Shown here piece by piece: positions 10,470 to 56,295 of a stretch of DNA of 64,000 nucleotides (the first letter of the stretch is position 1; every line of letters begins with the position of its first letter). The stretch is from Rhodocollybia butyracea (Eukaryota; Basidiomycota; Agaricomycetes; Agaricales; Omphalotaceae): the NCBI GenBank assembly GCA_015501585.1, contig JADNRY010000251.1:1-64000 (forward strand). The letters are read 5' to 3'. The notes beneath the pieces were generated by a model that saw nothing but the letters and a program-made list of their open reading frames with translations, made no database searches and was not told where the DNA came from. Made by a program: the position numbers and the translations under genes.

Positions 10470-12560
10470 GTGCAAAGACAGGAAGTGAATAAAGGAACAT
10501 AGAGAGGCTCCCTAGAGACTGTGAACGTGCCCTACATTGAAAATGAGTGAAAACCAAGGGAGAGATGGCAAAAAACATCAAAAATCACCTAAGTGAGACT
10601 GACCAGGGGGAGATGACCCAGATGGAAAGTGACCAGGAAGTGAGTAGAGGAGCATAGAGAGGGTCCTAAGCGAATGTGAATGGGCCCTACCTCGGAAAAA
10701 TTGAGTGAAAATTGAAGGAGTTATGGCAAAAACATTGAAAATCACCTATATGACGAGAGAGTGATGGAAAAAGTTGGGAATTGCTCTAGCGTGAGTAAGG
10801 CGATAGTGAGGGGGTACCTAGGGGATCTAAACGAGCCCTGGACGAAAGAAATCGAATGGAAACTGATGGAAATATGGCAAAAACAGCGAAAATCACCTAA
10901 GTGAGACTGACCAGGGGGAGATGAACAAGATGGAAAGTGACCAGGAAGTGAGTGGAGGAGCATGGAGAGGGTCCTAAGCAAATGTGAACGGGCCCTACCT
11001 CGGAAAAATTGAGTGAAAATTGAAGGAGTTATGGCAAAAACATTGAAAATCACCTATATGACGAGAGAGAGATGGAAAAAGTTGGGAATTGCTCTAGCGT
11101 GAGTAAGGCAATAGTGAGGGGGTACCTAGGGATCCAAACGAGCCCTGGACGAATGAAATCGAATGGAAACTGATGAAAATATGGCAAAAACAGCGAAAAT
11201 CACCTAAGTGAGACTGACCAGGGGGAGATGAACAAGATGGAAAGTGACCAGGAAGTGAGTGGAGGAGCATGGGGAGGGTCCTAAGCGAGTGTGAACGGGC
11301 CCTACCTCGGAAAAATTGAGTGAAAATTGAAGGAGTTATGGCAAAAACATTGAAAATCACCTATTGATGAGAGAGCGATGGAAAAGGTTGGGAATTTCTC
11401 TGGCGTGAGTAGGACGATAGTGAGTGGGTACCTAGGGGATCTAAACGAGCCCCGGACGAAAGAAATTGAATAAGAACTGATGGAAATATGGTAAAAACAG
11501 CGAAAATCACCTAAGTGAGACTGACCAGGGGGAGATGACCAAGATGGAAAGTGACCAAGAAGTGAGTGGAGGAGCATGGAAAGGGTCCTAAGCGAGTGTG
11601 AACGGGCCCTACCTCGGAAACATTGAGTGAAAATTGAAGGAGTTATGGCAAAAACATTGAAAATCACCTATTGATGAGAGAGCGATGGAAAAGGTTGGGA
11701 ATTTCTCTGGCGTGAGTACGACGATAGTGAGTGGGTACCTAGGGGATCTAAACGAGCCCCGGACGAAAGAAATTGAATAAGAACTGATGGAAATATGGTA
11801 AAAACAGCGAAAATCACCTAAGTGAGACTGACCAGGGGGAGATGACCAAGATGGAAAGTGACCAAGAAGTGAGTAGAGGAGCATGGAGAGGGTCCTAAGC
11901 GAGTGTGAACGGGCCCTACCTCGGAAACATTGAGTGAAAATTGAAGGAGTTATGGCAAAAACATTGAAAATCACCTATTGATGAGAGAGCGATGGAAAAG
12001 GTTGGGAATTTCTCTGGCGTGAGTACGAAGATAGTGAGTGGGTACCTAGGGGATCTAAACGAGCCCCGGACGAAAGAAATTGAATAAGAACTGATGGAAA
12101 TATGGTAAAAACAGCGAAAATCACCTAAGTGAGACTGACCAGGGGGAGATGACCAAGATGGAAAGTGACCAAGAAGTGAGTGGAGGAGCATGGAGAGGGT
12201 CCTAAGCGAATGTGAACGGGCCCTACCTCGGAAAAATTGAGTGAAAATTGAAGGAGTTATGGCAAAAACATTGAAAATCACCTATATGATGAGAGAGTGA
12301 TGGAAAAAGTTGGGAATTGCTCTAGCGTGAGTAAGGCAATAGTGAAGGGGTACCTAGGGGATCTAAACGAGCCCTGGACGAAAGAAATCGAATGGAAACT
12401 GATGGAAATATGGCAAAAACAGCGAAAATCACTTAAGTGAGAATGAACTGAGGAGTGCTGAACAACATGGGGAACTGATCATATGAGATCAAAGCAGCAT
12501 AGAGAATGTCTTTAGGCAATGTGAGTGAGCCCTACTTTGAAGAAATTGCATGAAAACTGC
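10470..12560 (-). repeat. 307-bp satellite array, left
   Basis: Tandem copies are spaced 307 bp apart (for example, the same frame starts at 11667, 11974 and 12281 on the minus strand). Each unit is a dimer of two related segments of about 150 bp, both ending GAAAATCACCTA. One half carries GTACCTAGGGGATCTAAACG and the other GGTCCTAAGCG...GGGCCCTACC. Outer copies are more diverged. The 88-121 aa ORFs in each unit are repeat-derived, with no known domain. Confidence 0.9.
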
Positions 12561-12954: not shown

Positions 12955-14525
12955 TTGTCATATCTCCTTCAGTTTTCACTCAATTTCTTTGAAGTAGAGC
13001 TCATTTAGATCCCCTAGGGACCCTCTCCCCACCGCTTCAATATTGTTTGAATAGCTCCCCATCTTGGTTACTGTCCCCAGGTCAGTCTCACTTAGGTGAT
13101 TTTCGCTGTTTTTGCCATAATTCCATCAGTTCTTATTCAATTTCTTTTGTCCAGGGCTCGTTTAGATCCCCTAGGTACCCCTCACTATCGCCCCACTCAC
13201 GCTAGAGCAATTCCCAACTTTTTCCATCTCTCTCTCGTCATATAGGTGATTTTCAATGTTTTTGCCATAACTCCTTCAATTTTCACTCAATTTTTCCGAG
13301 GTAGGGCCCGTTCACATTCGCTTAGGACCCTCTCCATGCTCCTCCACTCACCTCCTGGTCACTTTCCATCTTGTTCATCTCCCCCTGGTCAGTCTCACTT
13401 AGGTGATTTTCGCTGTATTTGCCATATTTCCACCAGTTTCCATTCAATTTCTTTCGTCCAGGGCTCGTTTAGATCCCCTAGGTACCCCCTTACTATCGCC
13501 TTACTCACGCTAGAGCAATTCCCAACTTTTTCCATCACTCTCTCATCATATAGGTGATTTTCAATGTTTTTGCCATAACTCCTTCAATTTTCACTCAATT
13601 TTTCCGAGGTAGGGCCCGTTCACATTCGCTTAGGACCCTCTCCATGCTCCTCCACTCACTTCTTGGTCACTTTCCATCTTGGTCATCTCCCCCTGGTCAG
13701 TCTCACTTAGGTGATTTTCGCTGTTTTTACCATATTTCCATCAGTTCTTATTCAATTTCTTTCGTCCGGGGCTCGTTTAGATCCCCTAGGTACCCCTTCA
13801 CTATTGCCTTCCTCACGCTAGAGCAATTCCCAACTTTTTCCATCGCTCTCTCATCAATAGGTGATTTTCAATGTTTTTGCCATAACTCCTTCAATTTTCA
13901 CTCAATGTTTCCGAGGTAGGGCCCGTTCACACTCGCTTAGGACCCTCTCCATGCTCCTCTACTCACTTCTTGGTCACTTTCCATCTTGGTCATCTCCCCT
14001 GGTCAGTCTCACTTAGGTGATTTTCGCTGTTTTTACCATATTTCCATCAGTTCTTATTCAATTTCTTTCGTCCGGGGCTCGTTTAGATCCCCTAGGTACC
14101 CACTCACTATCGTCGTACTCACGCCAGAGAAATTCCCAACCTTTTCCATCGCTCTCTCATCAATAGGTGATTTTCAATGTTTTTGCCATAACTCCTTCAA
14201 TTTTCACTCAATGTTTCCGAGGTAGGGCCCGTTCACACTCGCTTAGGACCCTTTCCATGCTCCTCCACTCACTTCTTGGTCACTTTCCATCTTGGTCATC
14301 TCCCCCTGGTCAGTCTCACTTAGGTGATTTTCGCTGTTTTTACCATATTTCCATCAGTTCTTATTCAATTTCTTTCGTCCGGGGCTCGTTTAGATCCCCT
14401 AGGTACCCACTCACTATCGTCCTACTCACGCCAGAGAAATTCCCAACCTTTTCCATCGCTCTCTCATCAATAGGTGATTTTCAATGTTTTTGCCATAACT
14501 CCTTCAATTTTCACTCAATTCTAGG
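12955..14525 (+). repeat. 307-bp satellite array, right (opposite orientation)
   Basis: The same 307-bp unit as in the left array occurs here in inverted orientation, with repeated frames at 13554, 13861 and 14167 on the plus strand. The array breaks off abruptly at about 14520, inside a unit. The two arrays together could form a hairpin of more than 1.5 kb per arm. Confidence 0.9.
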
Positions 14526-18139: not shown

Positions 18140-20110
18140 ATAGGATTCATAAGGGTTCTACCTGGATGCCTGGTCGAGGATAGCTGGTACATATCTGGGA
18201 TGTTGCTGATTCATACCTGGTCTGTACCTGTCCTGACTTCTGTCAGTAAATCACACTTTGGTTCTACCTGGATGACTGGTGCGGCATACCTGGTACACAA
18301 CTGGGCTCTTGCTGCTTTATACCTGTTCTGTACCTGTGGCCTCTGTGGATCAAACCTGGGTTATATCTGGATGCTTGGTGGAGCATAGCTGGTACATATC
18401 TGGGATCTTGCTGTTCTATACCTGTCCTCTCCTTAAATCACACCTGGGTCCTACCTGGAGGTGTGGGGCATCCAACCTGGTATGCAACTGGGCCTTGCTG
18501 CTTCATACCTGTTCCATACCTGTGGCCTCTGTGCATCATACCTGGGTTCTATCCAGATACATGGTGGAGCATAGCTGGTACATATCTGGGATTTTCCTGC
18601 TCCTTATCTGTTCCATACCTGTCCTGTCCATAGACTACACTCGGCTTCTACCTGGATCCCTGGTGGGGCATACCTGGTACACAACTGGGATCTTGCTGCT
18701 TTGTTCCGTACCTGTGGCCTCTGTGGATCATACCTGGTTTCTATCTGGATGCATGGAGGAGCATGCCTGGTATGCCACTGGGCTTCATACCTGTTCTGTT
18801 CCTGTCCTGTCTGTAGATCACACCTGCATTGTACCTGGATGCCTGGTGGGGCATCCCTGGTATGCAACTGGGGTCTTGCTGCTTCATACCTGTTCCATAC
18901 CTGTGGCCTCTGTGCATCAAACTGGGGTTCTATCTGGATACATGGTGGAGCATAGCTGGTACATATCTGGGATCTTGCTGTTTCATACCTGGTCCATACC
19001 TGTCCTGACTCCTGTCTGTAAATCACACTTGGGTTCTACCTGGATGGCTGGTGGGGCATACCTGGTACACAACCGGGGTCTTGCTGCTTCATACCTGTTC
19101 CGTACCCGTGACCTCTGTGCATCAAACCTGGGTTCTATCTGGATGCATGGAGGAGCATACCTGGTACATAACTGGGAACTTGTTGCTCCATTACGGCCAT
19201 AATAGTGTGTAATAAATCAGATATTGAAGCCATCAAATGCAACAATGTTGGTACCTGGTACAGTGGTACACAACTGTGGTCTTGCTGCCTCATACCTGTT
19301 CCATACCTGTGGCCTCTGTGGATCATACCTGGGATCTCTCTGGATGCATGGTGGAGCATCATCAGGAAAATGCCCCCTACACTCAAGTAACCTTAAGCCA
19401 ACCTGGCTGACCCCCCAGCCAACCTGAGGGCAGTGCATCCAGATAGAAACCGGGTGTGATCCACACCACAGATGCTACAGGTACAGAACAGGGATGAAGC
19501 AGCAAGGCTCCCATTGCATACAAGTTATGCCCCACCAAGCATCCAGATAAAAGCCTTGTGTGATCTAAAGACAGGACAGTTACAGAACAGGTATGAAGCC
19601 GCAAGATCCCTGATATGTACCAGCTATGATCCTCCATGCATCCAGATAGAAACCAGGTATGATCCACAGAGGCCACAGGTACAGAACAGGTATGAAGCAG
19701 GAAGACCCCAGTTGCATACCAGGTATGCCCCACCAGGGATCCAGGTAGAACCCAAGTGTGCCCTACAGACAGGACAGGAATGGAATACATAGGAAGCAGG
19801 AAGATCCCAGATATGTACGAGTTATGCTCCACCATGCATCCAGATAGAACTCAGGTATGATGCACAGAGGCCACAGGTATGGAACAGGTATGAAGCAGGT
19901 GTGATCTATGGACAGGACAGATACAGAACAGGTATGAAGCAACAAGACCCCAGTTGTGTACCAGGTATGCTCCACCAGCCATCCAGGTAGAACCCACGTG
20001 TGATTTACGGATAGGAGTCAGGATAGGTACCAACTAGGTATGAAACAGCAACATCCCCAGTATGTACCAACTATGCTCCACCATGCATCCTGGTAGAAAA
20101 CAGGTAAGGC
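18140..20110. repeat. CACTA-2 subterminal minisatellite type 2
   Basis: Units of about 100 bp alternate between two flavours: TGGTACATATCTGGGATCTT...CTGTCC and TGGTATGCAACTGGGGTCTT...CTGTGGCCTCTGTGGATCA. All share GGATGCMTGGTGGRGCATA. Long frames (such as 307 aa from 18279) are repetitive translations. The block is mirrored at 32570-33627 and 36905-37260, with further copies in the spacer at 28880-29220, 30060-30200, 30480-30870 and 31600-31800. Confidence 0.85.
19358..19436. repeat. Short copy of the foldback-element terminus inside the arm
   Basis: About 79 bp starting TCAGGAAAATGCCCCC and ending CCAACCTGAGGGC matches, with substitutions, the right terminal 79 bp of the foldback element at 9995-14961. 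Both ends carry TCAGG/CCTGA, so it may be a minimal relative. It is mirrored in the right arm at about 33244-33322. Confidence 0.6.
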
Positions 20111-20129
20111 CACAGGTACAGATACCTGC

Positions 20130-20688
20130 CTGCTTCCGTGAAGAGCCTGACATTGCCCCAGATCCTCCAGAAGCTGCACCAGGCAATAGACCAGATGTTG
20201 CAGAAGGTGTTGCCATGGCCTTTGTGGCCACTGTCCATGCTCAGGGAGCCTCAGAGCCCCGCACTCTGCAGGAAGCATTCCGCGGTCCTAACTTGGCCTC
20301 TTGGCTGAAGGCTGTAGACACAGAGCTCAAGTCTCTCATTGATTTGGGAGATTTTGAGTTTATTAACAATTTGCCTAAAGGTCACTGTGCTATTAGCTCC
20401 AAGCTTGTCTTTAACATTAAGCGCCTTCCTGATGGGACCATTGAGTGGCACAAGGCATGCTTAGTTGCTCAACATTTCTCCCAGATGCCTAGCTCAGACT
20501 TTGACAAGGTATTTTCCCCTCTGGTCAAACTTACCTCCATTTGTGTCCTTTGCGCCCTCGCTGTGCATCTAGGCCTTCACTTCCACCCTCATGATGTTGA
20601 TACCACATTCCTTAATGGTGAGTTGGAAGAGGAGCTCTATATGCGCCTCCCAAACAGCATTAGTGAACATTCTGGTAAAATTGTTTAA
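20130..20688 (+). pseudogene. Captured copia reverse-transcriptase fragment (left arm)
   Basis: Within the 208-aa frame ending at 20688, residues after about 23 match the N-terminal part of an RVT_2 domain (NLASWLKAVDTELKSL, NIKRLPDGTIEWHKACLVAQ, HPHDVDTTFLNGELEEELYM). The fragment lacks the catalytic DD region, LTRs and the rest of pol. It is embedded in subterminal repeats and occurs identically in the right arm, so it was captured before the palindrome formed or was homogenised between arms. It comes from a copia lineage different from copia-1. Confidence 0.85.
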
Positions 20689-31991: not shown

Positions 31992-32550
31992 TTAAACAAT
32001 TTTACCAGAATGTTCACTAATGCTGTTTGGGAGGCGCATATAGAGCTCCTCTTCCAACTCACCATTAAGGAATGTGGTATCAACATCATGAGGGTGGAAG
32101 TGAAGGCCTAGATGCACAGCGAGGGCGCAAAGGACACAAATGGAGGTAAGTTTGACCAGAGGGGAAAATACCTTGTCAAAGTCTGAGCTAGGCATCTGGG
32201 AGAAATGTTGAGCAACTAAGCATGCCTTGTGCCACTCAATGGTCCCATCAGGAAGGCGCTTAATGTTAAAGACAAGCTTGGAGCTAATAGCACAGTGACC
32301 TTTAGGCAAATTGTTAATAAACTCAAAATCTCCCAAATCAATGAGAGACTTGAGCTCTGTGTCTACAGCCTTCAGCCAAGAGGCCAAGTTAGGACCGCGG
32401 AATGCTTCCTGCAGAGTGCGGGGCTCTGAGGCTCCCTGAGCATGGACAGTGGCCACAAAGGCCATGGCAACACCTTCTGCAACATCTGGTCTATTGCCTG
32501 GTGCAGCTTCTGGAGGATCTGGGGCAATGTCAGGCTCTTCACGGAAGCAG
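31992..32550 (-). pseudogene. Captured copia reverse-transcriptase fragment (right arm copy)
   Basis: The encoded sequence is identical to the fragment at 20130-20688, as expected from the palindrome. It contains the N-terminal half of an RVT_2 domain without the catalytic aspartates. It is not an independent gene. Confidence 0.85.
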
Positions 32551-33627
32551 GCAGGTATCTGTACCTGTGGCCTTACCTGTTTTCTACCAGGATGCATGGT
32601 GGAGCATAGTTGGTACATACTGGGGATGTTGCTGTTTCATACCTAGTTGGTACCTATCCTGACTCCTATCCGTAAATCACACGTGGGTTCTACCTGGATG
32701 GCTGGTGGAGCATACCTGGTACACAACTGGGGTCTTGTTGCTTCATACCTGTTCTGTATCTGTCCTGTCCATAGATCACACCTGCTTCATACCTGTTCCA
32801 TACCTGTGGCCTCTGTGCATCATACCTGAGTTCTATCTGGATGCATGGTGGAGCATAACTCGTACATATCTGGGATCTTCCTGCTTCCTATGTATTCCAT
32901 TCCTGTCCTGTCTGTAGGGCACACTTGGGTTCTACCTGGATCCCTGGTGGGGCATACCTGGTATGCAACTGGGGTCTTCCTGCTTCATACCTGTTCTGTA
33001 CCTGTGGCCTCTGTGGATCATACCTGGTTTCTATCTGGATGCATGGAGGATCATAGCTGGTACATATCAGGGATCTTGCGGCTTCATACCTGTTCTGTAA
33101 CTGTCCTGTCTTTAGATCACACAAGGCTTTTATCTGGATGCTTGGTGGGGCATAACTTGTATGCAATGGGAGCCTTGCTGCTTCATCCCTGTTCTGTACC
33201 TGTAGCATCTGTGGTGTGGATCACACCCGGTTTCTATCTGGATGCACTGCCCTCAGGTTGGCTGGGGGGTCAGCCAGGTTGGCTTAAGGTTACTTGAGTG
33301 TAGGGGGCATTTTCCTGATGATGCTCCACCATGCATCCAGAGAGATCCCAGGTATGATCCACAGAGGCCACAGGTATGGAACAGGTATGAGGCAGCAAGA
33401 CCACAGTTGTGTACCACTGTACCAGGTACCAACATTGTTGCATTTGATGGCTTCAATATCTGATTTATTACACACTATTATGGCCGTAATGGAGCAACAA
33501 GTTCCCAGTTATGTACCAGGTATGCTCCTCCATGCATCCAGATAGAACCCAGGTTTGATGCACAGAGGTCACGGGTACGGAACAGGTATGAAGCAGCAAG
33601 ACCCCGGTTGTGTACCAGGTATGCCCC

Positions 33628-43680: not shown

Positions 43681-43870
43681 ACGCGTAAATTTCGGGCCCG
43701 CCTCCGCTTCCCTCCCCTCCCTCGCAAGCTCGGGGGTCCCCCAAGCCGGGAAGTCGTCGGCGGGCACCCTAAAGCCTCATTTACGCAGGATATATATGCG
43801 GAGCGCCTGCGGCGCACCCTAACCCTAACCCTAAACCCTAACCAAACCCAAACCCTAACAAGTCTTACCG
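43680..43870. repeat. Dispersed GC-rich repeat with telomere-like tract
   Basis: The segment contains GCCGGGAAGTCGTCGGCGGG, then AAAGCCTCATTTACGC and three perfect CCCTAA units followed by degenerate ones (43817-43860). A copy in the opposite orientation lies at 63115-63250, also next to GGTTAGGGGTTAGG. This looks like a dispersed element carrying telomere-like sequence, not a chromosome end. Confidence 0.7.
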
Positions 43871-50794: not shown

Positions 50795-51537
50795 TCAGTC
50801 CCAGGCTGAAGTTAGCTGGTTTTGATGAACAAAATCATACACTGTCTCCCAGTTCCGGCAAATATGGGTCTGCCCTATCCCGTCTGTCCCTCGCAGAGTC
50901 CCATTGGCCTCAATATTCAATGGGTCGAGCGTGGTATCTGATGCGCATAGCACCGCCTAACAGTCATTTCAGTAATTTCAATACAGTTATCGGATTAGAG
51001 AGAAAAAATTATTTGCCTGTCTAAGGAAGTTTAAACAGTGCTGAGTATGTTCAGATACATCATTCAGGAGGATAGAGCTACGAAGGATCTGGAGACAATG
51101 CATCTGATGAAACATGCTGATACCAAATGCACGCCCTGCAATGATATTGAGCACTACCACGTCTTTGTAACAGATAAGGCGCACCTTTGGAGCCCAGTCT
51201 AACAAACCCGTTTCCCTTCGGAAATGCATCCATTGCGCGCCACTCCGCCCAGGACTCGAATCCTGTGAGGGAGAACTGCGCCGAATTCTCAAATGTTAGT
51301 GCAACAGGGGGAACATGAAGAGGTAGCAAGGTGGGGTAGTCGTTTCCTTCGTAGCCTGCTGTAATGAAAAACTTGGATTTCCTAGTGAGAAAAGAACATA
51401 CTGTAATCACCCGCATTCTCTGAGGTTTCCCGAAGAAGCTTGAGAGTGACCCAAAGGTTCATGCTAAAGCTTGCAAACAGAGAGAAAATCAAAAAAATGA
51501 CAACAGACTTTGGGAGGGCCCAAAATTTTTGAGTCAT
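50795..51537 (-). CDS. UstYa/DUF3328-like oxidase
   Basis: Four exons give a 196-residue protein: 51537-51402, 51358-51185, 51135-51017 and 50956-50795. An N-terminal transmembrane anchor (SVVIFLIFSLFASFSMNL) is followed by the family blocks GNDYPTLLP, FESWAEWRAM, GNGFVRLG and FGISMFHQMHCLQILR. The second conserved block is HTQHCLNFLRQ, and then LCASDTTLDPL and HICRNWETVYDF. Two HxxHC motifs (HQMHC, HTQHC), diagnostic of UstYa proteins, are present and intact. The third intron uses a GC donor (CAG|GCAAAT), while the others are GT-AG. Family members oxidatively cyclise or modify peptide cores in fungal RiPP pathways such as ustiloxin. A repeat-precursor gene lies 3.8 kb away. No disabling change is seen. 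Confidence 0.9.
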
Positions 51538-52057
51538 GATAGTTTCAAATGGATCAGAGACCGATAACGACTAAAAAACAGGTAGGGTATAGGGCTTAAC
51601 TATAAGATTTCACACGTTGTTTGAGTTGACCAAACCTTCCAAAATCTGCTCAGTTCTAGTCGTGTGTCACGCAGAACATATTATACACACACGGGAAGGG
51701 AAGTAAAGGAAAGAAGCCGGCAGGCAAGGGCTCTCTGTTTAAGGTTTAAGGAAACAGTCCAAAGTAAACATGTGAGTTTTGTTTAGAACACAAGTTTCCC
51801 CGGGAGAAGCCTATATTAAAAAAGTGACAACATCGATCCGGACAGGCTCAATGATTGAATAATTTACCAATCGGTTGGTAATGTTGATTTCATATCCTTC
51901 TCCAAACACGAAGGTCAGAGAAATAGGTTCTTCCCCTTTTCTCAATACAACCACATAAGCTCCCAACAGGTCATTATCCACAACTGGCGACTGTCTCTGT
52001 CTCATTTGCTACCCCATCTCCCTCAGTACCTGAATTGGTATCCAAACAAGTCCGAGA
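51538..52057. promoter_or_regulatory. Divergent promoter between the UstYa-like and membrane-protein genes
   Basis: The two flanking genes start 520 bp apart on opposite strands, so this interval must hold both promoters and could co-regulate them. A 64-codon minus-strand frame (52005-51811, MRQRQSPVVDNDLLGAYVVV) has a coding-like look but no family. I leave it unassigned. No clear TATA box was located. Confidence 0.5.
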
Positions 52058-53159
52058 ATGCGTCGCTCTAGAAACTCATCTGTCGAGGACTATATTCCAC
52101 TCATACCAGAAGACCCAGGGGACGGCTGGCAGTCATTGCATATCGTACCCGTGCCGACACATCGCAGGATCATATTCATAATTTCAGCTGTCCTGTCGAT
52201 CCTGACCGTCTCAGTTTCATTCTGCCTTGTCGGGACTTCTTTCAAGAGGAACATGTTTCCCAGAACGCTTGACGGCCTCGCAATTCTCTCACCGTATCCC
52301 AACAGAGATGAAGCAAACATATTGAAGGCCTCAAGGAATGGTCTGTGTGCCTTCATTTTCTTGTACCAACTCACATATGTTTGTTTCAAGCTCCAAAGAT
52401 GTGGTTTCCTAATTGGATTGTCAATGTCAACTCAAACGAACCTAACAGAGTGAAAACTCCAGGAAGTCATGTTGTAATCGGTAGTACCGTACGCCACTCC
52501 CCTCTCATACACCATTCCAGCTCATTTTGAGGTCCGGGAGTATAGGATTCTACTTTTTTCCACTGGGTGACCAATCTTTCTCCTACGGCATCCTGTTACA
52601 TCGAGGCCGTAGTGAGTAATACCTCTGCCCTTGCGGCTGGTGGGAAATCTTCGTACGCTTCTACTGGTAACATATCTGCGCTCGAAGTATGGAACGTCAC
52701 TGCGCTCCCAGAGTCCGGAATTACATGGAGTACCCGTCCGCAGCGGCTGAATCTTTTGGGAACAATAAATTTCACAGAAGATATACTTAGATCTTACGAT
52801 ACAGGGTGGCAACTAAGAAATCCAACACCGAGGTTTGGATGTGAGGGCAAGAGAGAGACAGTTGTTGAAGTTGCTTGTCCTGTGGATGCGGTGGAGGATA
52901 CTGGATGCTGGTTAGAGTTTGAGCAAGTGTTTTTCAACTCCCCCTTTGTGTGAGTTGTGCCATTTTTCGAAATTGAGTGCCTTAAGTTAAATATTTTGTG
53001 CAGCGTTTGACTTGCAAGAACTTCGTTAAATACGACGAAGCACAGAAGGAGCTATATTTCTCCCTGTTTATTGCCTGTTCCATATGTATCTCAATCGTCT
53101 CCGGTGCTGCTATACTAAAATACACTTTGGTTTATGAAATAACAATGGACATCTACTAA
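52058..53159 (+). CDS. Two-TM membrane glycoprotein of unknown family
   Basis: The proposed exons are 52058-52340, 52391-52473, 52546-52947 and 53004-53159, giving 307 residues. The N-terminus (MRRSRNSSVEDYIPLIPEDP) precedes a TM segment at about 37-58 (RIIFIISAVLSILTVSVSFC). The central region has many N-glycosylation sequons (NTS, NIS, NVT, NFT, NLS) and paired Cys residues (SCYIEAVV, RFGCEGK, VACPVD, GCWLEFEQ). A second TM lies near the C-terminus (YFSLFIACSICISIVSGAAI). The outside-facing domain between the TMs suggests a surface or secretory-pathway protein. The gene is divergent from the UstYa-like gene. The second intron has an unusual acceptor context and is the least certain. Confidence 0.6.
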
Positions 53160-55229
53160 TCCTTCCGGGGGCCGCCATTGCTTCTGTTTAGGGCCCGTGA
53201 TTGCTTGCACTTGATTTTCATATCTGAGATTCGTTCTTACAGCTAGCAAGGGGGCATGGAGATAGTTAGAGTTTAAAACAATCCAACTGAACGACTGCCA
53301 AATCACACCAGAAAGCACTGAAAAGTTGCAAAAAGGTGCTGGGTGGGTTTGTGTACTGATAAGATCAGCGGTGGGTTCCAGTTTGCCCGGAATGGTCATT
53401 AAAAATTTCAGTACACATTTCTACCGGACAGTGTTTTGGAACTTTACTGGCTGTATTACTGCTGGTTGCAACGTGTCCTTTTACTTGGAAAGAAGGATTG
53501 ATCACACAGCTGCCTGTCACGGTCCAAGAGTTGGACACCGGTTTCCTCAGAATGCTACAAGATCAGCTTTGAGGGTTCTTTTATCCCCATTTCTGCTTTG
53601 GTTGCCCTAACCCGGCCCCTAACAGCACCAGCCCCAGGGCTTACCAATTGATCAACATCTCTTCCATCTCTTACTACTTTATATGACCATTGATGACTCG
53701 GATGTCAGTAAACCAAAACAGATCTAGGTACTGTCTGGTGTGAGTAGAGAAGTGGACAACAGAGAAGAGGAAGACAGATTCTCTGAACAATGGGAGTGGC
53801 CCGGCGGAAGTCGCATCTGATGACCCATAGTAAAGCTTGAGAAATTTCTTGGTGGCCAGATCACAGAACCATTTGATTAACTTGTGACATCATGTACAAC
53901 GAGGGAGGTGAAGCGGGGCTACGGATGGAACTTATTGCAGCAGAGTATTCTGTTGTACTGCCGGTCTGAAGGATTGGACACTGAATCACACTCGTAATAG
54001 GGAATATTCTGCTATCTATAGCTAAGTTTCATCTTCGGCCCTATTAAGCTTGGCTTGGTCCACTTAGCGCCGCTATCTGATATCGTTATCGACGACTATC
54101 TCTAGTTTTTTCTAGTTTTTTGATCCACCATATACCTTGGCAGAAGATTCACTGGTGAGTAGTTGCTAGTGGGAGCAAAGTAGGAGCGAGTATTTTCACT
54201 AAACTTTGAACTTCTGGAATCAGGTACAGTCAGGACTCAGGGAATAAGTGGATGAGCTTCTATATTGCAATTTGTTCCGCCCCCAGGCTCCGGCCACATC
54301 TACACAGCATAGCTGTGAGTTAGGCTTCATGTCTTGGTTATTTTTGCTATCTGATTTTGTCAGCAGGGATATGGTAGCCGTCAACACGATGCAGCCTGTT
54401 GGTGGGCATCCATCAGCGGCTTCTCTTTCACACTTGACTTCTTTGGCCCCCCTCGTTGATCGGCGTCTTGTCAATTCAGTAGCAGGGGATCTGAGCACTG
54501 CAGTCCTCAGGAGTTTATGGCCTTTGGCTGGGACACTGGGCCTCAAATTGCAGCCGGTGCAATAACGCATCGCAGAGTTGCGCTGGAATTTCCAGTAGCC
54601 ATGCATGCATCACAATATCTAGTATCCAGGTCCAGTCACGAGTAGCCTAGTAGAGCTACTTATAGCCACTTCGGGGGACATCCGCCTTTCGTTTACTCAC
54701 TGAGAAGTAATACAGGGCAGTAGAAGGTGACGGAAATAAGACAAGTAGCGGGAAGCAGACAGTTCCCTATTGTGGGATGATTGGATAGCCTTCACACGTT
54801 CTCTGACTTCTAGGCCCATTAGGGAAAACTCCTCGTGGTGCGAAGTAGTGGCCGTAGGTACTGTACGATTACGACCGTAAGTTCAACCCTCTGGAGCATT
54901 ACGGGCTAGGTTTAGGTCACACGCAGTTTAAGGCCCAATTTTTTGCGTTACTCCTTGGTTCAGGCTCCGTAGGCGCCGCTAAAATTGCATATCAAAGCAC
55001 AAAAATACAGTTTTAATACCTTATGACGAGAATTTTTACAGTTCAGGCAGCTGCGCTATCATTACAGATCTGGAATTGTCTGAGTTCAGAGTGCTTGCGT
55101 AACGCGTTACTGAACTTACGATCGTGATTGTACAGTAATTTGCTAAATTAACTCTTACCCAAATGTCCTGCGAGACTATAGCCAATATCAGACAAGGAAC
55201 ACATGCCAGCATAGAAAAACTTGAGAGTG
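53160..55229. other. Region without a supported gene
   Basis: Short ORFs exist on both strands (for example 53326-53610 plus, and the overlapping pair 54220-54606 minus / 54248-54565 plus), but none has a recognisable domain. A partial plus-strand stretch at about 53435-53560 encodes a hydrophobic segment followed by a charged tail and could be an exon of an unidentified gene. Confidence 0.45.
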
Positions 55230-55240
55230 TATATAAAAGG
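55230..55240 (+). promoter_or_regulatory. TATA box of the repeat-precursor gene
   Basis: TATATAAAAGG lies about 90 bp upstream of the ATG at 55322. This is a strong consensus TATA element at a normal distance for a fungal gene and suggests high or inducible expression. Confidence 0.65.
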
Positions 55241-55321
55241 GCAAGCCCCAAGAATGAACTGCCAAACTTCCAGAGTCAAGCCACCTCCTTGATACCACTT
55301 CTAAAAACTACTCCCTTCGCC

Positions 55322-56295
55322 ATGCGTTCCAACGTCGTCATGACTATCCTTCCTCTTGTTCTTGTTGCTGTTCAAGCAGCTCCTCTTGTAAACCGTGAGT
55401 TTGGCCATCTCCCAATATTTGTTACTTGCTATCCATCACTTTGCTGATCTCATGCCCGTATTCCAGGCATCAATGATGGTAATAAAACTACTGTACTGAG
55501 CTCAATAACCGTCCTGCGCAAGCTTACCAACATGGAAATGTAAGGGCACAAACAAGAATGGCTACGAAGTCACCGTACCTGATATCACCGTACGCAAGAC
55601 TGTATGCCTACTATTCAGATCATTCTCTGCTAGAAACTTACACATCGTCAAAATGCTAGGGCACAGACAAGGAATTCTACGAGTTCATCCCTGATGTTAC
55701 TGCACGCAAGACTGTATGTCTCACTACTCATTCTCTGCTAGCTTACAAACTTACACATCGTCAAAATGCTAGGGCACAGACAAGGAATTCTACGAGTTCA
55801 TCCCTGATGTCACAGCACGCAAGGCTGTATGTCTACTACTCATTCTCTAGATCTCTGCCGGCTTACAAACTTACACATCGTCGAAATGCTAGGGCACAGA
55901 CAAGGAGTTCTACGAGTTCATCCCTGATGTCACAGCACGCAAGACTGTATGTCTACTACTCATTCTCTAGATCTCTGCCAGCTTACAAACTTACACATCG
56001 TCAAAATGCTAGGGCACAGACAAGGAGTTCTACGAGTTCATCCCTGATGTCACAGCACGCAAGACTGTATGTCTACTACTCGTTCTCTAGATCTCTCTAG
56101 ATCTCTGCTGGCTTACAAACTTACAAACTGTCAAAATTCTAGGGCACAGACAAGGACTTCTACGAGCTCACCGTCCCTGATGTCACTGCACGCAAGATTG
56201 TACGTCTCACTACTCATTTTCTACAGACTTAGTAACCCTCAAAACCCAAGGGCACTAACAAGAATGGCTACGAAGTCACCGTGCCTGCAATCTGA
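55322..56295 (+). CDS. Secreted tandem-repeat peptide precursor, one repeat per exon (putative RiPP/KEP precursor)
   Basis: Exons: 55322-55394, 55467-55492, 55545-55601, 55660-55713, 55773-55826, 55893-55946, 56013-56066, 56143-56199, 56251-56295; about 157 residues. A signal peptide (MRSNVVMTILPLVLVAVQAA) comes first. Then come seven repeats, each a single phase-0 exon of 54 or 57 nt starting at GGC ACA/ACT. Repeats 2-5 read GTDKEFYEFIPDVTARK(T/A), repeat 1 GTNKNGYEVTVPDITVRKT, repeat 6 GTDKDFYELTVPDVTARKI, and repeat 7 is cut short by a stop after GTNKNGYEVTVPAI. Every full repeat has a Tyr, a Pro-Asp and a dibasic RK. Most differences among repeats 2-5 are synonymous, supporting this frame. 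Introns (51-76 nt) are also near-identical. The design matches substrates of UstYa enzymes, although RK is a weaker Kex2 site than KR. Confidence 0.82.
55602..56142. repeat. Tandem exon-intron duplication unit (113-130 bp) of the precursor gene
   Basis: Whole exon-plus-intron units repeat. The intron parts share GTATGTCTMCTACTCATTCT and GCTTACAAACTTACACATCG and end AAATGCTAG. The unit starts repeat with spacings of 113, 120, 120 and 130 bp. Near-identity of non-coding introns shows recent unequal exchange. Confidence 0.9.

What the first reader, a model, noticed from the sequence alone, without database searches (positions are those of the whole stretch)
50795..56295. Candidate UstYa-linked secreted peptide (RiPP) locus
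A UstYa/DUF3328-like oxidase with both HxxHC motifs lies 3.8 kb from a gene encoding a signal peptide and seven Tyr-containing repeats, each full repeat ending in a dibasic RK. In dikaritin pathways (ustiloxin, phomopsin, asperipin) UstYa proteins modify repeats released from exactly this kind of precursor. The repeat sequences (NGYEVTVPDI, EFYEFIPDV, DFYELTVPDV) match none of the dikaritin cores I know. A divergent two-TM glycoprotein shares the UstYa promoter region. The link between the genes is inference from proximity and family knowledge.
Basis: partly seen in the sequence, partly recalled or inferred. Interest (0 to 1): 0.92.

Follow-up and report, generated by a model that had tools for sequence, protein, structure and literature searches.

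The report
Exon-per-repeat UstYa peptide clusters
A mushroom genome carries small clusters in which a gene for a secreted repeat peptide, each repeat on its own tiny exon, lies beside a UstYa-type oxidase gene, so cyclised peptides may be commoner in mushrooms than gene catalogues suggest.

Summary
The host is the mushroom Rhodocollybia butyracea. 50795-51537(-) encodes a UstYa protein identical to a public 195-aa protein. 55322-56295(+) encodes a signal peptide and seven Tyr repeats, one phase-0 exon each (57, 54 or, last, 45 nt). The link is more than proximity: paralogous loci C509/C427 and C1161 carry the same three genes. Their precursors have Kex2 sites (KR/RR) and a core DRKGYDIT (DSKGYDIT in C1161); over 29 copies 46 of 47 variant letters are third codon positions. 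A Mycena polygramma precursor shares DRKGYDI, and its contig length equals that of a UstYa contig of that species.

Corrections: the window precursor has no KR, RR or KK, only RK, so it is a diverged member, not a textbook dikaritin precursor. The 'two-TM glycoprotein' is But2-like; its second TM is not supported. Of 11 UstYa loci counted in this genome, 7 have a repeat precursor nearby, 6 with one exon per repeat; in 4 none was seen.

Verdict: a basidiomycete variant of a known kind (UstYa-linked repeat peptides). Cyclisation is inferred, not shown.

The parts
50795..51537 (-). UstYa-family (DUF3328, PF11807) oxidase gene; exons 51402-51537, 51185-51355, 51017-51135, 50795-50956; last intron GC-AG
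   Evidence: PF11807 E 1e-16; identical to P0001 (195 aa); paralogs in C509, C427, C1161
52058..52953 (+). But2-like membrane protein gene with one N-terminal TM stretch (by eye); exons 52058-52340, 52391-52488, 52546-about 52953 (ends read off the sequence); divergent from the UstYa gene
   Evidence: the public partial protein P0073 equals the model over its 217 aa; PF09792 below cut-off in three relatives (15.5, 21.7, 16.1 bits against 24.2); P0074, P0075 and P0076 end in S[IF]DLQELR; the window copy differs by one base in a T run near its C-terminus, which shifts the frame
55230..55237 (+). TATA-box-like TATATAAA 92 nt before the precursor ATG
55322..55394 (+). precursor exon 1: signal peptide MRSNVVMTILPLVLVAVQAAPLVN
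   Evidence: 75% DNA identity to the C509 precursor over the first 154 nt, intron 1 included
55467..55492 (+). precursor exon 2: short linker RINDGNKTT
55545..55601 (+). repeat exon 1: GTNKNGYEVTVPDITVRKT (57 nt; AAG acceptor)
55660..55713 (+). repeat exon 2: GTDKEFYEFIPDVTARKT (54 nt)
55773..55826 (+). repeat exon 3: GTDKEFYEFIPDVTARKA (54 nt)
55893..55946 (+). repeat exon 4: GTDKEFYEFIPDVTARKT (54 nt)
56013..56066 (+). repeat exon 5: GTDKEFYEFIPDVTARKT (54 nt)
56143..56199 (+). repeat exon 6: GTDKDFYELTVPDVTARKI (57 nt)
56251..56295 (+). terminal exon: truncated repeat GTNKNGYEVTVPAI and stop (45 nt; AAG acceptor)

Best explanation
The locus is a small UstYa-linked repeat-peptide (RiPP-type) cluster of a mushroom and a diverged member of a three-gene family in this genome: But2-like membrane protein, UstYa oxidase, secreted repeat precursor. 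Proposed mechanism: the pre-mRNA of the precursor is spliced so that each core arrives on its own phase-0 exon (supported by sequence). The protein enters the secretory pathway by its signal peptide (sequence, judged by hydropathy). Kexin cuts at basic pairs; KR/RR is clear in the paralogs, while in the window copy only RK is left, so cutting there is uncertain. The UstYa protein, membrane-anchored near its N-terminus and with two HxxHC motifs, oxidatively crosslinks the Tyr side chain of each repeat to a residue after it in the motif Y-D/E-[I/V/F/L] (inference from ustiloxin and phomopsin). The But2-like protein is a helper of unknown action in the same compartment (inference). The products are short secreted peptides.
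For: UstYa identity and motifs. The three genes recur collinearly in C509/C427 and C1161, with the window copy rearranged; C24 holds a second copy of the C1161 precursor and a UstYa piece at its contig end. Core conservation: minority letters by codon position 0/1/46 in 29 copies. The independent annotation P0077 equals the exon-per-repeat model of C1161. UstYa dN/dS window against C509, C427, C1161: 0.235, 0.234, 0.178; But2-like exon 3, window against C427 and C1161: 0.104, 0.147 (C509 left out for a length difference). Mycena polygramma P0078 has KR-flanked DRKGYDILYDEVE repeats and is listed with contig length 720900, as is UstYa P0051 of that species; Stereum hirsutum UstYa P0007 and But2-like P0076 are both listed with 1715195. 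Repeat precursors lie near 7 of 11 distinct UstYa loci counted here.
Against: The window precursor has 0 KR, 0 RR, 0 KK and 6 RK. No Pfam hit in 51 of 65 ORFs of window 40-64 kb; in 88 of 120 ORFs around C509 and C1161 only GT15, actin and GH123_N_2: no tyrosinase, P450, methyltransferase or peptidase, though single-frame ORFs are a poor probe of intron-rich genes. In window repeats 2-5 the residue two after Tyr is Phe, not the Ile of ustiloxins. The window But2-like gene has a shifted C-terminus. No precursor was seen near 4 of 11 UstYa loci. One UstYa-linked array (C921) is not split by introns. No expression or mass data.
Confidence: 0.66

Rival explanations
1. A repeat precursor whose peptides are secreted linear and unmodified (an ordinary KEP); the UstYa gene beside it acts on something else.
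For: The KEP peptides detected in four Agaricomycetes by Vogt 2022 are linear or minimally modified (PMC9769878, abstract and discussion). R. butyracea has a homologue of one of them: C495 and C939, with no PF11807 hit listed on those contigs.
Against: The three genes are kept together in C552, C509/C427 and C1161, with both partner genes under purifying selection, and a Mycena precursor and UstYa are listed with one contig length. The unlinked KEP arrays are uninterrupted frames, unlike six of the seven UstYa-linked precursors.
Confidence: 0.2
2. The window copy is a decaying paralog: the cluster moved into a transposon-rich region, lost its Kex2 sites and is on the way to a pseudogene, while C509/C427 and C1161 are the working loci. 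This concerns the window copy only and is compatible with the main reading of the family.
For: No KR/RR/KK; frame shift near the But2-like C-terminus; GC donor in the UstYa gene; Copia-type remnants in the left of the window; no second full copy of the window precursor in a search of the genome.
Against: The UstYa frame is intact with both motifs, at dN/dS 0.18-0.24; nine precursor exons stay open and in phase; a TATA-like box remains.
Confidence: 0.35
3. The repeat is a non-coding minisatellite with a chance open frame.
For: The window is full of tandem arrays, and SP-like starts near arrays are not rare.
Against: Repeat exons of 54/57 nt while intron lengths of 51-76 nt leave every remainder on division by three; 46 of 47 variant letters at third codon positions in the paralogous core; P0077 annotated identically; core shared with Mycena.
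Confidence: 0.03

Closest known systems
Dikaritins (ustiloxin, phomopsin, asperipin-2a clusters of ascomycetes)
   Same: Signal peptide, repeated Tyr cores, UstYa/DUF3328 gene near the precursor; Tyr-x-Ile/Val order in DRKGYDIT and in YEVT, as in YAIG, YVIG and YVIP (cores from a passage of PMC7329392).
   Different: Basidiomycete; each core on its own exon; window copy without KR/RR/KK; one UstYa gene per locus seen; no tyrosinase or other tailoring domain found in the ORFs scanned; But2-like partner.
KEPs (Kex2-processed repeat proteins) of Agaricomycetes
   Same: Secreted repeat precursor; paralogs with KR/RR between repeats.
   Different: The KEP peptides detected by Vogt 2022 are linear or minimally modified (PMC9769878, abstract and discussion); the unlinked KEP of this genome is not split by introns in its array.
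Epichloecyclin gigA cluster
   Same: Small cluster: repeat precursor, one DUF3328 gene and a hypothetical protein (PMC7317419, passages).
   Different: The gigA cluster has its own kexin gene kexB; no peptidase domain was seen in the ORFs scanned here; different core; ascomycete.

Membership tests
UstYa family (PF11807) | Pfam profile above its curated cut-off | tested here: met
   61.9 bits against 25, E 1e-16
UstYa family (PF11807) | two HxxHC motifs | tested here: met
   HQMHC and HTQHC; near-invariant in 54 aligned rows
KEP (Kex2-processed repeat protein), window precursor | signal peptide and tandem repeats | tested here: met
   signal peptide judged by eye and hydropathy, not by a predictor
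KEP (Kex2-processed repeat protein), window precursor | KR, RR or KK between repeats | tested here: not met
   KR 0, RR 0, KK 0, RK 6. The window copy is therefore not filed as a KEP.
KEP, related precursors C509, C1161, C431, Mycena P0078 | KR, RR or KK between repeats | tested here: met
   C509 KR6 RR3, C1161 KR2, Mycena KR3, C431 KR4 RR1; not at every repeat: 4 of 13 C509 repeats have QR
Dikaritin | precursor gene near a DUF3328 gene | tested here: met
   window: ATGs 3785 nt apart; C509 and C1161: precursor ATG 1441 and 1250 nt beyond the UstYa stretch
Dikaritin | Kex2 sites flanking the core | tested here: not met
   window copy: none of KR, RR, KK; met in the paralogs. The window copy is therefore described as dikaritin-like, not as a dikaritin.
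Dikaritin | Tyr crosslinked to a later residue of the core | not testable with these tools
   needs mass spectrometry or NMR
Dikaritin | tyrosinase (needed for ustiloxins and phomopsins, PMC7329392 passage) or other tailoring genes | tested here: inconclusive
   none in 51 of 65 window ORFs and 88 of 120 paralog-locus ORFs, but genes split into small exons can be missed
But2 (PF09792) | profile above curated cut-off | tested here: not met
   15.5, 21.7, 16.1 bits for P0074, P0076, P0075 against 24.2; none for the window exon 3. Hence 'But2-like' only.

The most novel reading that the evidence does not exclude
Mushroom-forming fungi hold a large hidden class of UstYa-modified peptides. Their precursors are missed because every core is a separate phase-0 exon of some 42-57 nt, which gene predictors drop. 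Since each exon can be skipped without breaking the frame, splicing can set the number and mix of cores per transcript, as a splice-tuned peptide library. The reported rarity of UstYa-linked KEPs in Basidiomycota (6.1% against 30.1%) would then be partly an annotation artefact.
Probability: 0.3. Interest if true: 0.85.

Novelty: new variant of a known kind. Interest (0 to 1): 0.62.

Why it matters
Umemura 2020 (PMC7329392, passages) reported DUF3328 genes near 1647 of 5372 ascomycete KEPs (30.1% as printed) but 103 of 1680 basidiomycete KEPs (6.1%), and suggested that cyclisation may hardly occur in Basidiomycota or that the motif differs. Here 7 of 11 UstYa loci counted in one mushroom have a repeat precursor nearby, 6 with one exon per repeat. 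The window and C509/C427 precursors were not returned by the protein search, while that of C1161 was (capped list). That turns the puzzle into a test: re-search mushroom genomes at exon level around UstYa genes. The DRKGYDI core, shared by Rhodocollybia and Mycena, is a concrete peptide to look for by mass spectrometry.

Tried and rejected
Chance minisatellite: rejected. Two-TM protein: rejected in favour of one TM; relatives P0074, P0075 and P0076 end in S[IF]DLQELR. Three of 32 KGYDIT-coding matches lie outside the arrays (C468, C497, C1160:657024): C468 and C1160:657024 were read and show no array; C497, with the same matched word as C468, was not read. AlphaFold model of the But2-like protein: unusable, mean pLDDT 32, so no fold search was made. 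Solved structures: no credible relative of UstYa (2 matches, best E 0.64) or of the But2-like protein (11 matches, best E 0.29). UstYa tree of 30 of 72 hits: 14 of 27 inner branches open, not used as evidence. Literature: one search was swamped by unrelated 'giga' words. Searches (no paper; 20 of 106 listed; 11 listed; 10 of 30 listed) gave, in listings and in the passages that I read, no description of exon-per-repeat fungal RiPP precursors; search 58 (3 listed of 4) no paper on this core. Only open-licence papers are held, and supplements could not be read.

Full report
What is there. The window (64 kb, GC 0.437) is contig C552 of a 95.6 Mb assembly in 1381 contigs. Public protein records name the organism: Rhodocollybia butyracea, a basidiomycete. 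On the minus strand, 50795-51537 encodes a UstYa-family protein (PF11807, 61.9 bits, cut-off 25). My four-exon model is identical to P0001, BDP27DRAFT_1494225, 195 aa. Its last intron starts with GC; C509, C427 and C1161 have GT. HQMHC and HTQHC are present; in 54 aligned rows (window included, 54 of 72 hits) the four His are H in 53, 53, 51 and 53 and the two Cys are invariant. The hits that bear an organism name are from basidiomycete genera (my reading of the names).

The repeat gene. 55322-56295 gives a 157-aa protein: signal peptide, a short linker and seven repeats. Each repeat is one exon (57, 54, 54, 54, 54, 57 and 45 nt), the full ones phase 0-0; the eight introns are 51-76 nt and their lengths leave every remainder on division by three. 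Two of the eight introns end in AAG. In the paralog C1161 the same kind of splicing (four of four introns AAG) yields exactly the public protein P0077, 82 aa, so the model agrees with an independent annotation. The precursors of the window and of C509/C427 were not among the two hits of the profile search (E up to 10; 7994 candidates scored, a stated cap).

Evidence for the link. Searches of the genome with the window UstYa and precursor led to further loci. C509 and its partner C427 (94.5-96.7% identical in the long matches) carry But2-like gene, UstYa and precursor, all codirectional, plus a second precursor start cut off by the contig end. C1161 has the same order. C24 holds a second copy of the C1161 precursor and a UstYa piece at its contig end. 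In the window the order is changed: UstYa is inverted against the But2-like gene, and the precursor ATG lies 3785 nt from the UstYa ATG. UstYa dN/dS, window against C509, C427 and C1161, is 0.235, 0.234 and 0.178; But2-like exon 3, window against C427 and C1161, 0.104 and 0.147, with C509 left out for a one-base length difference. Outside the genus, Mycena polygramma P0078 has four DRKGYDILYDEVE-type repeats and is listed with a contig of 720900 bases, the length also listed for its UstYa P0051; Stereum hirsutum UstYa P0007 and But2-like P0076 are both listed with 1715195. Equal contig length suggests one contig; the distance is not known.

The core. The C509 and C427 precursors have 13 repeats each, C1161 three; the remnant FYGVA at the end of C1161 exon 1 is not counted. 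Over the 29 copies of the eight-residue core, minority letters by codon position are 0, 1 and 46. The pattern used to collect them fixed some positions, but the exon models show no repeat exon of these three arrays left out. Three of the 46 third-position letters (AGC in C1161) change Arg to Ser; the one second-position letter gives GYGIT in C1161. All 26 C509/C427 copies read DRKGYDIT. C509 and C427 are partners and repeats share history, so these are not 46 independent events; C509 alone gives 0, 0, 18. In the window, the four 54-nt exons give 1, 0, 4, while the two 57-nt exons differ at 12 sites in all three positions, so the window repeats are less constrained. Of 32 genome-wide matches to a KGYDIT-coding pattern, 29 lie in these arrays. 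Predicted product after KR cleavage: DRKGYDITGGDVE; the Mycena counterpart has the same length.

The window copy is odd. It has no KR, RR or KK and six RK, while C509 has KR 6, RR 3 and RK 13, with QR at 4 of 13 repeats. Vogt 2022 names KR, RR and KK as Kex2 sites (PMC9769878, passage). Its repeats read GTDKEFYEFIPDVTARKT and related forms. The But2-like gene has a one-base difference in a T run that moves its C-terminus out of the frame that ends in S[IF]DLQELR in the relatives. So the window cluster may be a diverged or decaying member; the UstYa frame is intact.

Other UstYa loci in the same genome. From the PF11807 and UstYa searches, which list lower bounds, I count 11 loci after pairing contigs with matching copies and taking the two C921 hits, 6 kb apart, as one: C552, C509/C427, C1161a/C24, C431, C1160/C305, C14, C921/C1161b, C517, C827a, C827b, C223. 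Split-repeat precursors lie in six: the first three; C431, exon KRSSDVDDAFPGWN four times; C1160, repeats GTDMDKVAAPGGEVWIKR and GADFDEAAGPSDQTWNKR on successive exons, with further copies read by eye, one of them partly deleted; C14, AKRGEVDMDAAAANGPDTFWG and AKRAESGDQSGEVDTDVVGANGPDSWWG, by eye. C921 has an uninterrupted 17-residue array with RR after a signal-peptide-like start, by eye. None was seen in the flanks read of C517, C827a, C827b and C223; that scan looked for tandem repeats and signal-peptide-like starts and would miss diverged arrays, as its repeat part missed C14. There is no transcript for any of these. A control matters: in the window 8 of 28 array rows have an SP-like start within 400 nt, 7 of them not this gene, so SP plus array alone means little. 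KR in frame and phase-0 exons carry the weight, and I had no random-locus control for the 7 of 11.

A contrast. Vogt 2022 reports a Lentinula edodes KEP whose peptide was seen by mass spectrometry and a homologue in R. butyracea (PMC9769878, passage). Matching arrays are at C495 and C939 (SGTGESSAADW and AGTGESSGADW repeats with RR or KR): each is one open frame, and those contigs have no listed PF11807 hit. One-exon-per-repeat is thus not simply how this genome builds every KEP, though the sample is tiny and C921 is an exception on the other side.

How it most likely works. Shown by sequence: the gene family, exon structure, a secretion signal (by hydropathy), Kex2 sites in the paralogs, a conserved Tyr core. 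Inferred: kexin cleavage, UstYa crosslinking at Tyr, a helper role of the But2-like protein. Tyr-x-Ile in DRKGYDIT and Tyr-x-Val in the window's first repeat match the Tyr/Ile positions that are linked in ustiloxins and phomopsins (PMC7329392, passage); repeats 2-5 of the window have Phe there.

Novelty. UstYa-linked KEPs in Basidiomycota are on record in numbers (103 of 1680), and Pleurotus has 16 UstYa-like genes described as probably involved in dikaritin production (PMC8893723, passage). In my ten literature searches, judged from listings and the passages read, I found no report of exon-per-core precursors, of the DRKGYDI core or of the But2-like partner (no search was aimed at the last). 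Papers outside the open library and supplements were not seen. I file it as a new variant of a known kind.

Noticed in passing
window 6329-36138: Copia-type retrotransposon domains (RVT_2, gag, Pol_BBD) in the left of the window; RVT_2 pieces at 20044-20685(+) and 31995-32636(-) give the same profile score, as if in an inverted pair.
   Followed up: partly
window 10565-12446 and 13059-14520: Two arrays of a 307-base unit, 6.1 and 4.8 copies at 95% match, whose listed units look like reverse complements of each other.
   Followed up: no
window 43816-43859: Short interstitial telomere-like stretch of CCCTAA units.
   Followed up: no
L021:1-340 (C509); C427:241-339: A second precursor-like gene with a similar signal-peptide exon and a KR followed by ITALYYIT, cut by the contig end in C509; C427 has a matching stretch by search, not read.
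   Followed up: partly
C431:20122, C1160:358518, C14:113244: Trp-bearing repeat precursors (D-x-D, P, W, KR) beside other UstYa genes, recalling the W-with-P type that Umemura lists as DUF3328-linked.
   Followed up: partly
C509/C1161 flanks (L021, L022, L025, L026): GT15 mannosyltransferase and actin domain hits (5 and 4 of 88 ORFs scanned); no role assigned.
   Followed up: no
introns of the precursors in C509, C427, C1161, C431 and the window: Many modelled introns end in AAG (C509 13 of 14, C427 13 of 14, C1161 4 of 4, C431 1 of 6, window 2 of 8); A at position -3 is recalled as uncommon.
   Followed up: partly
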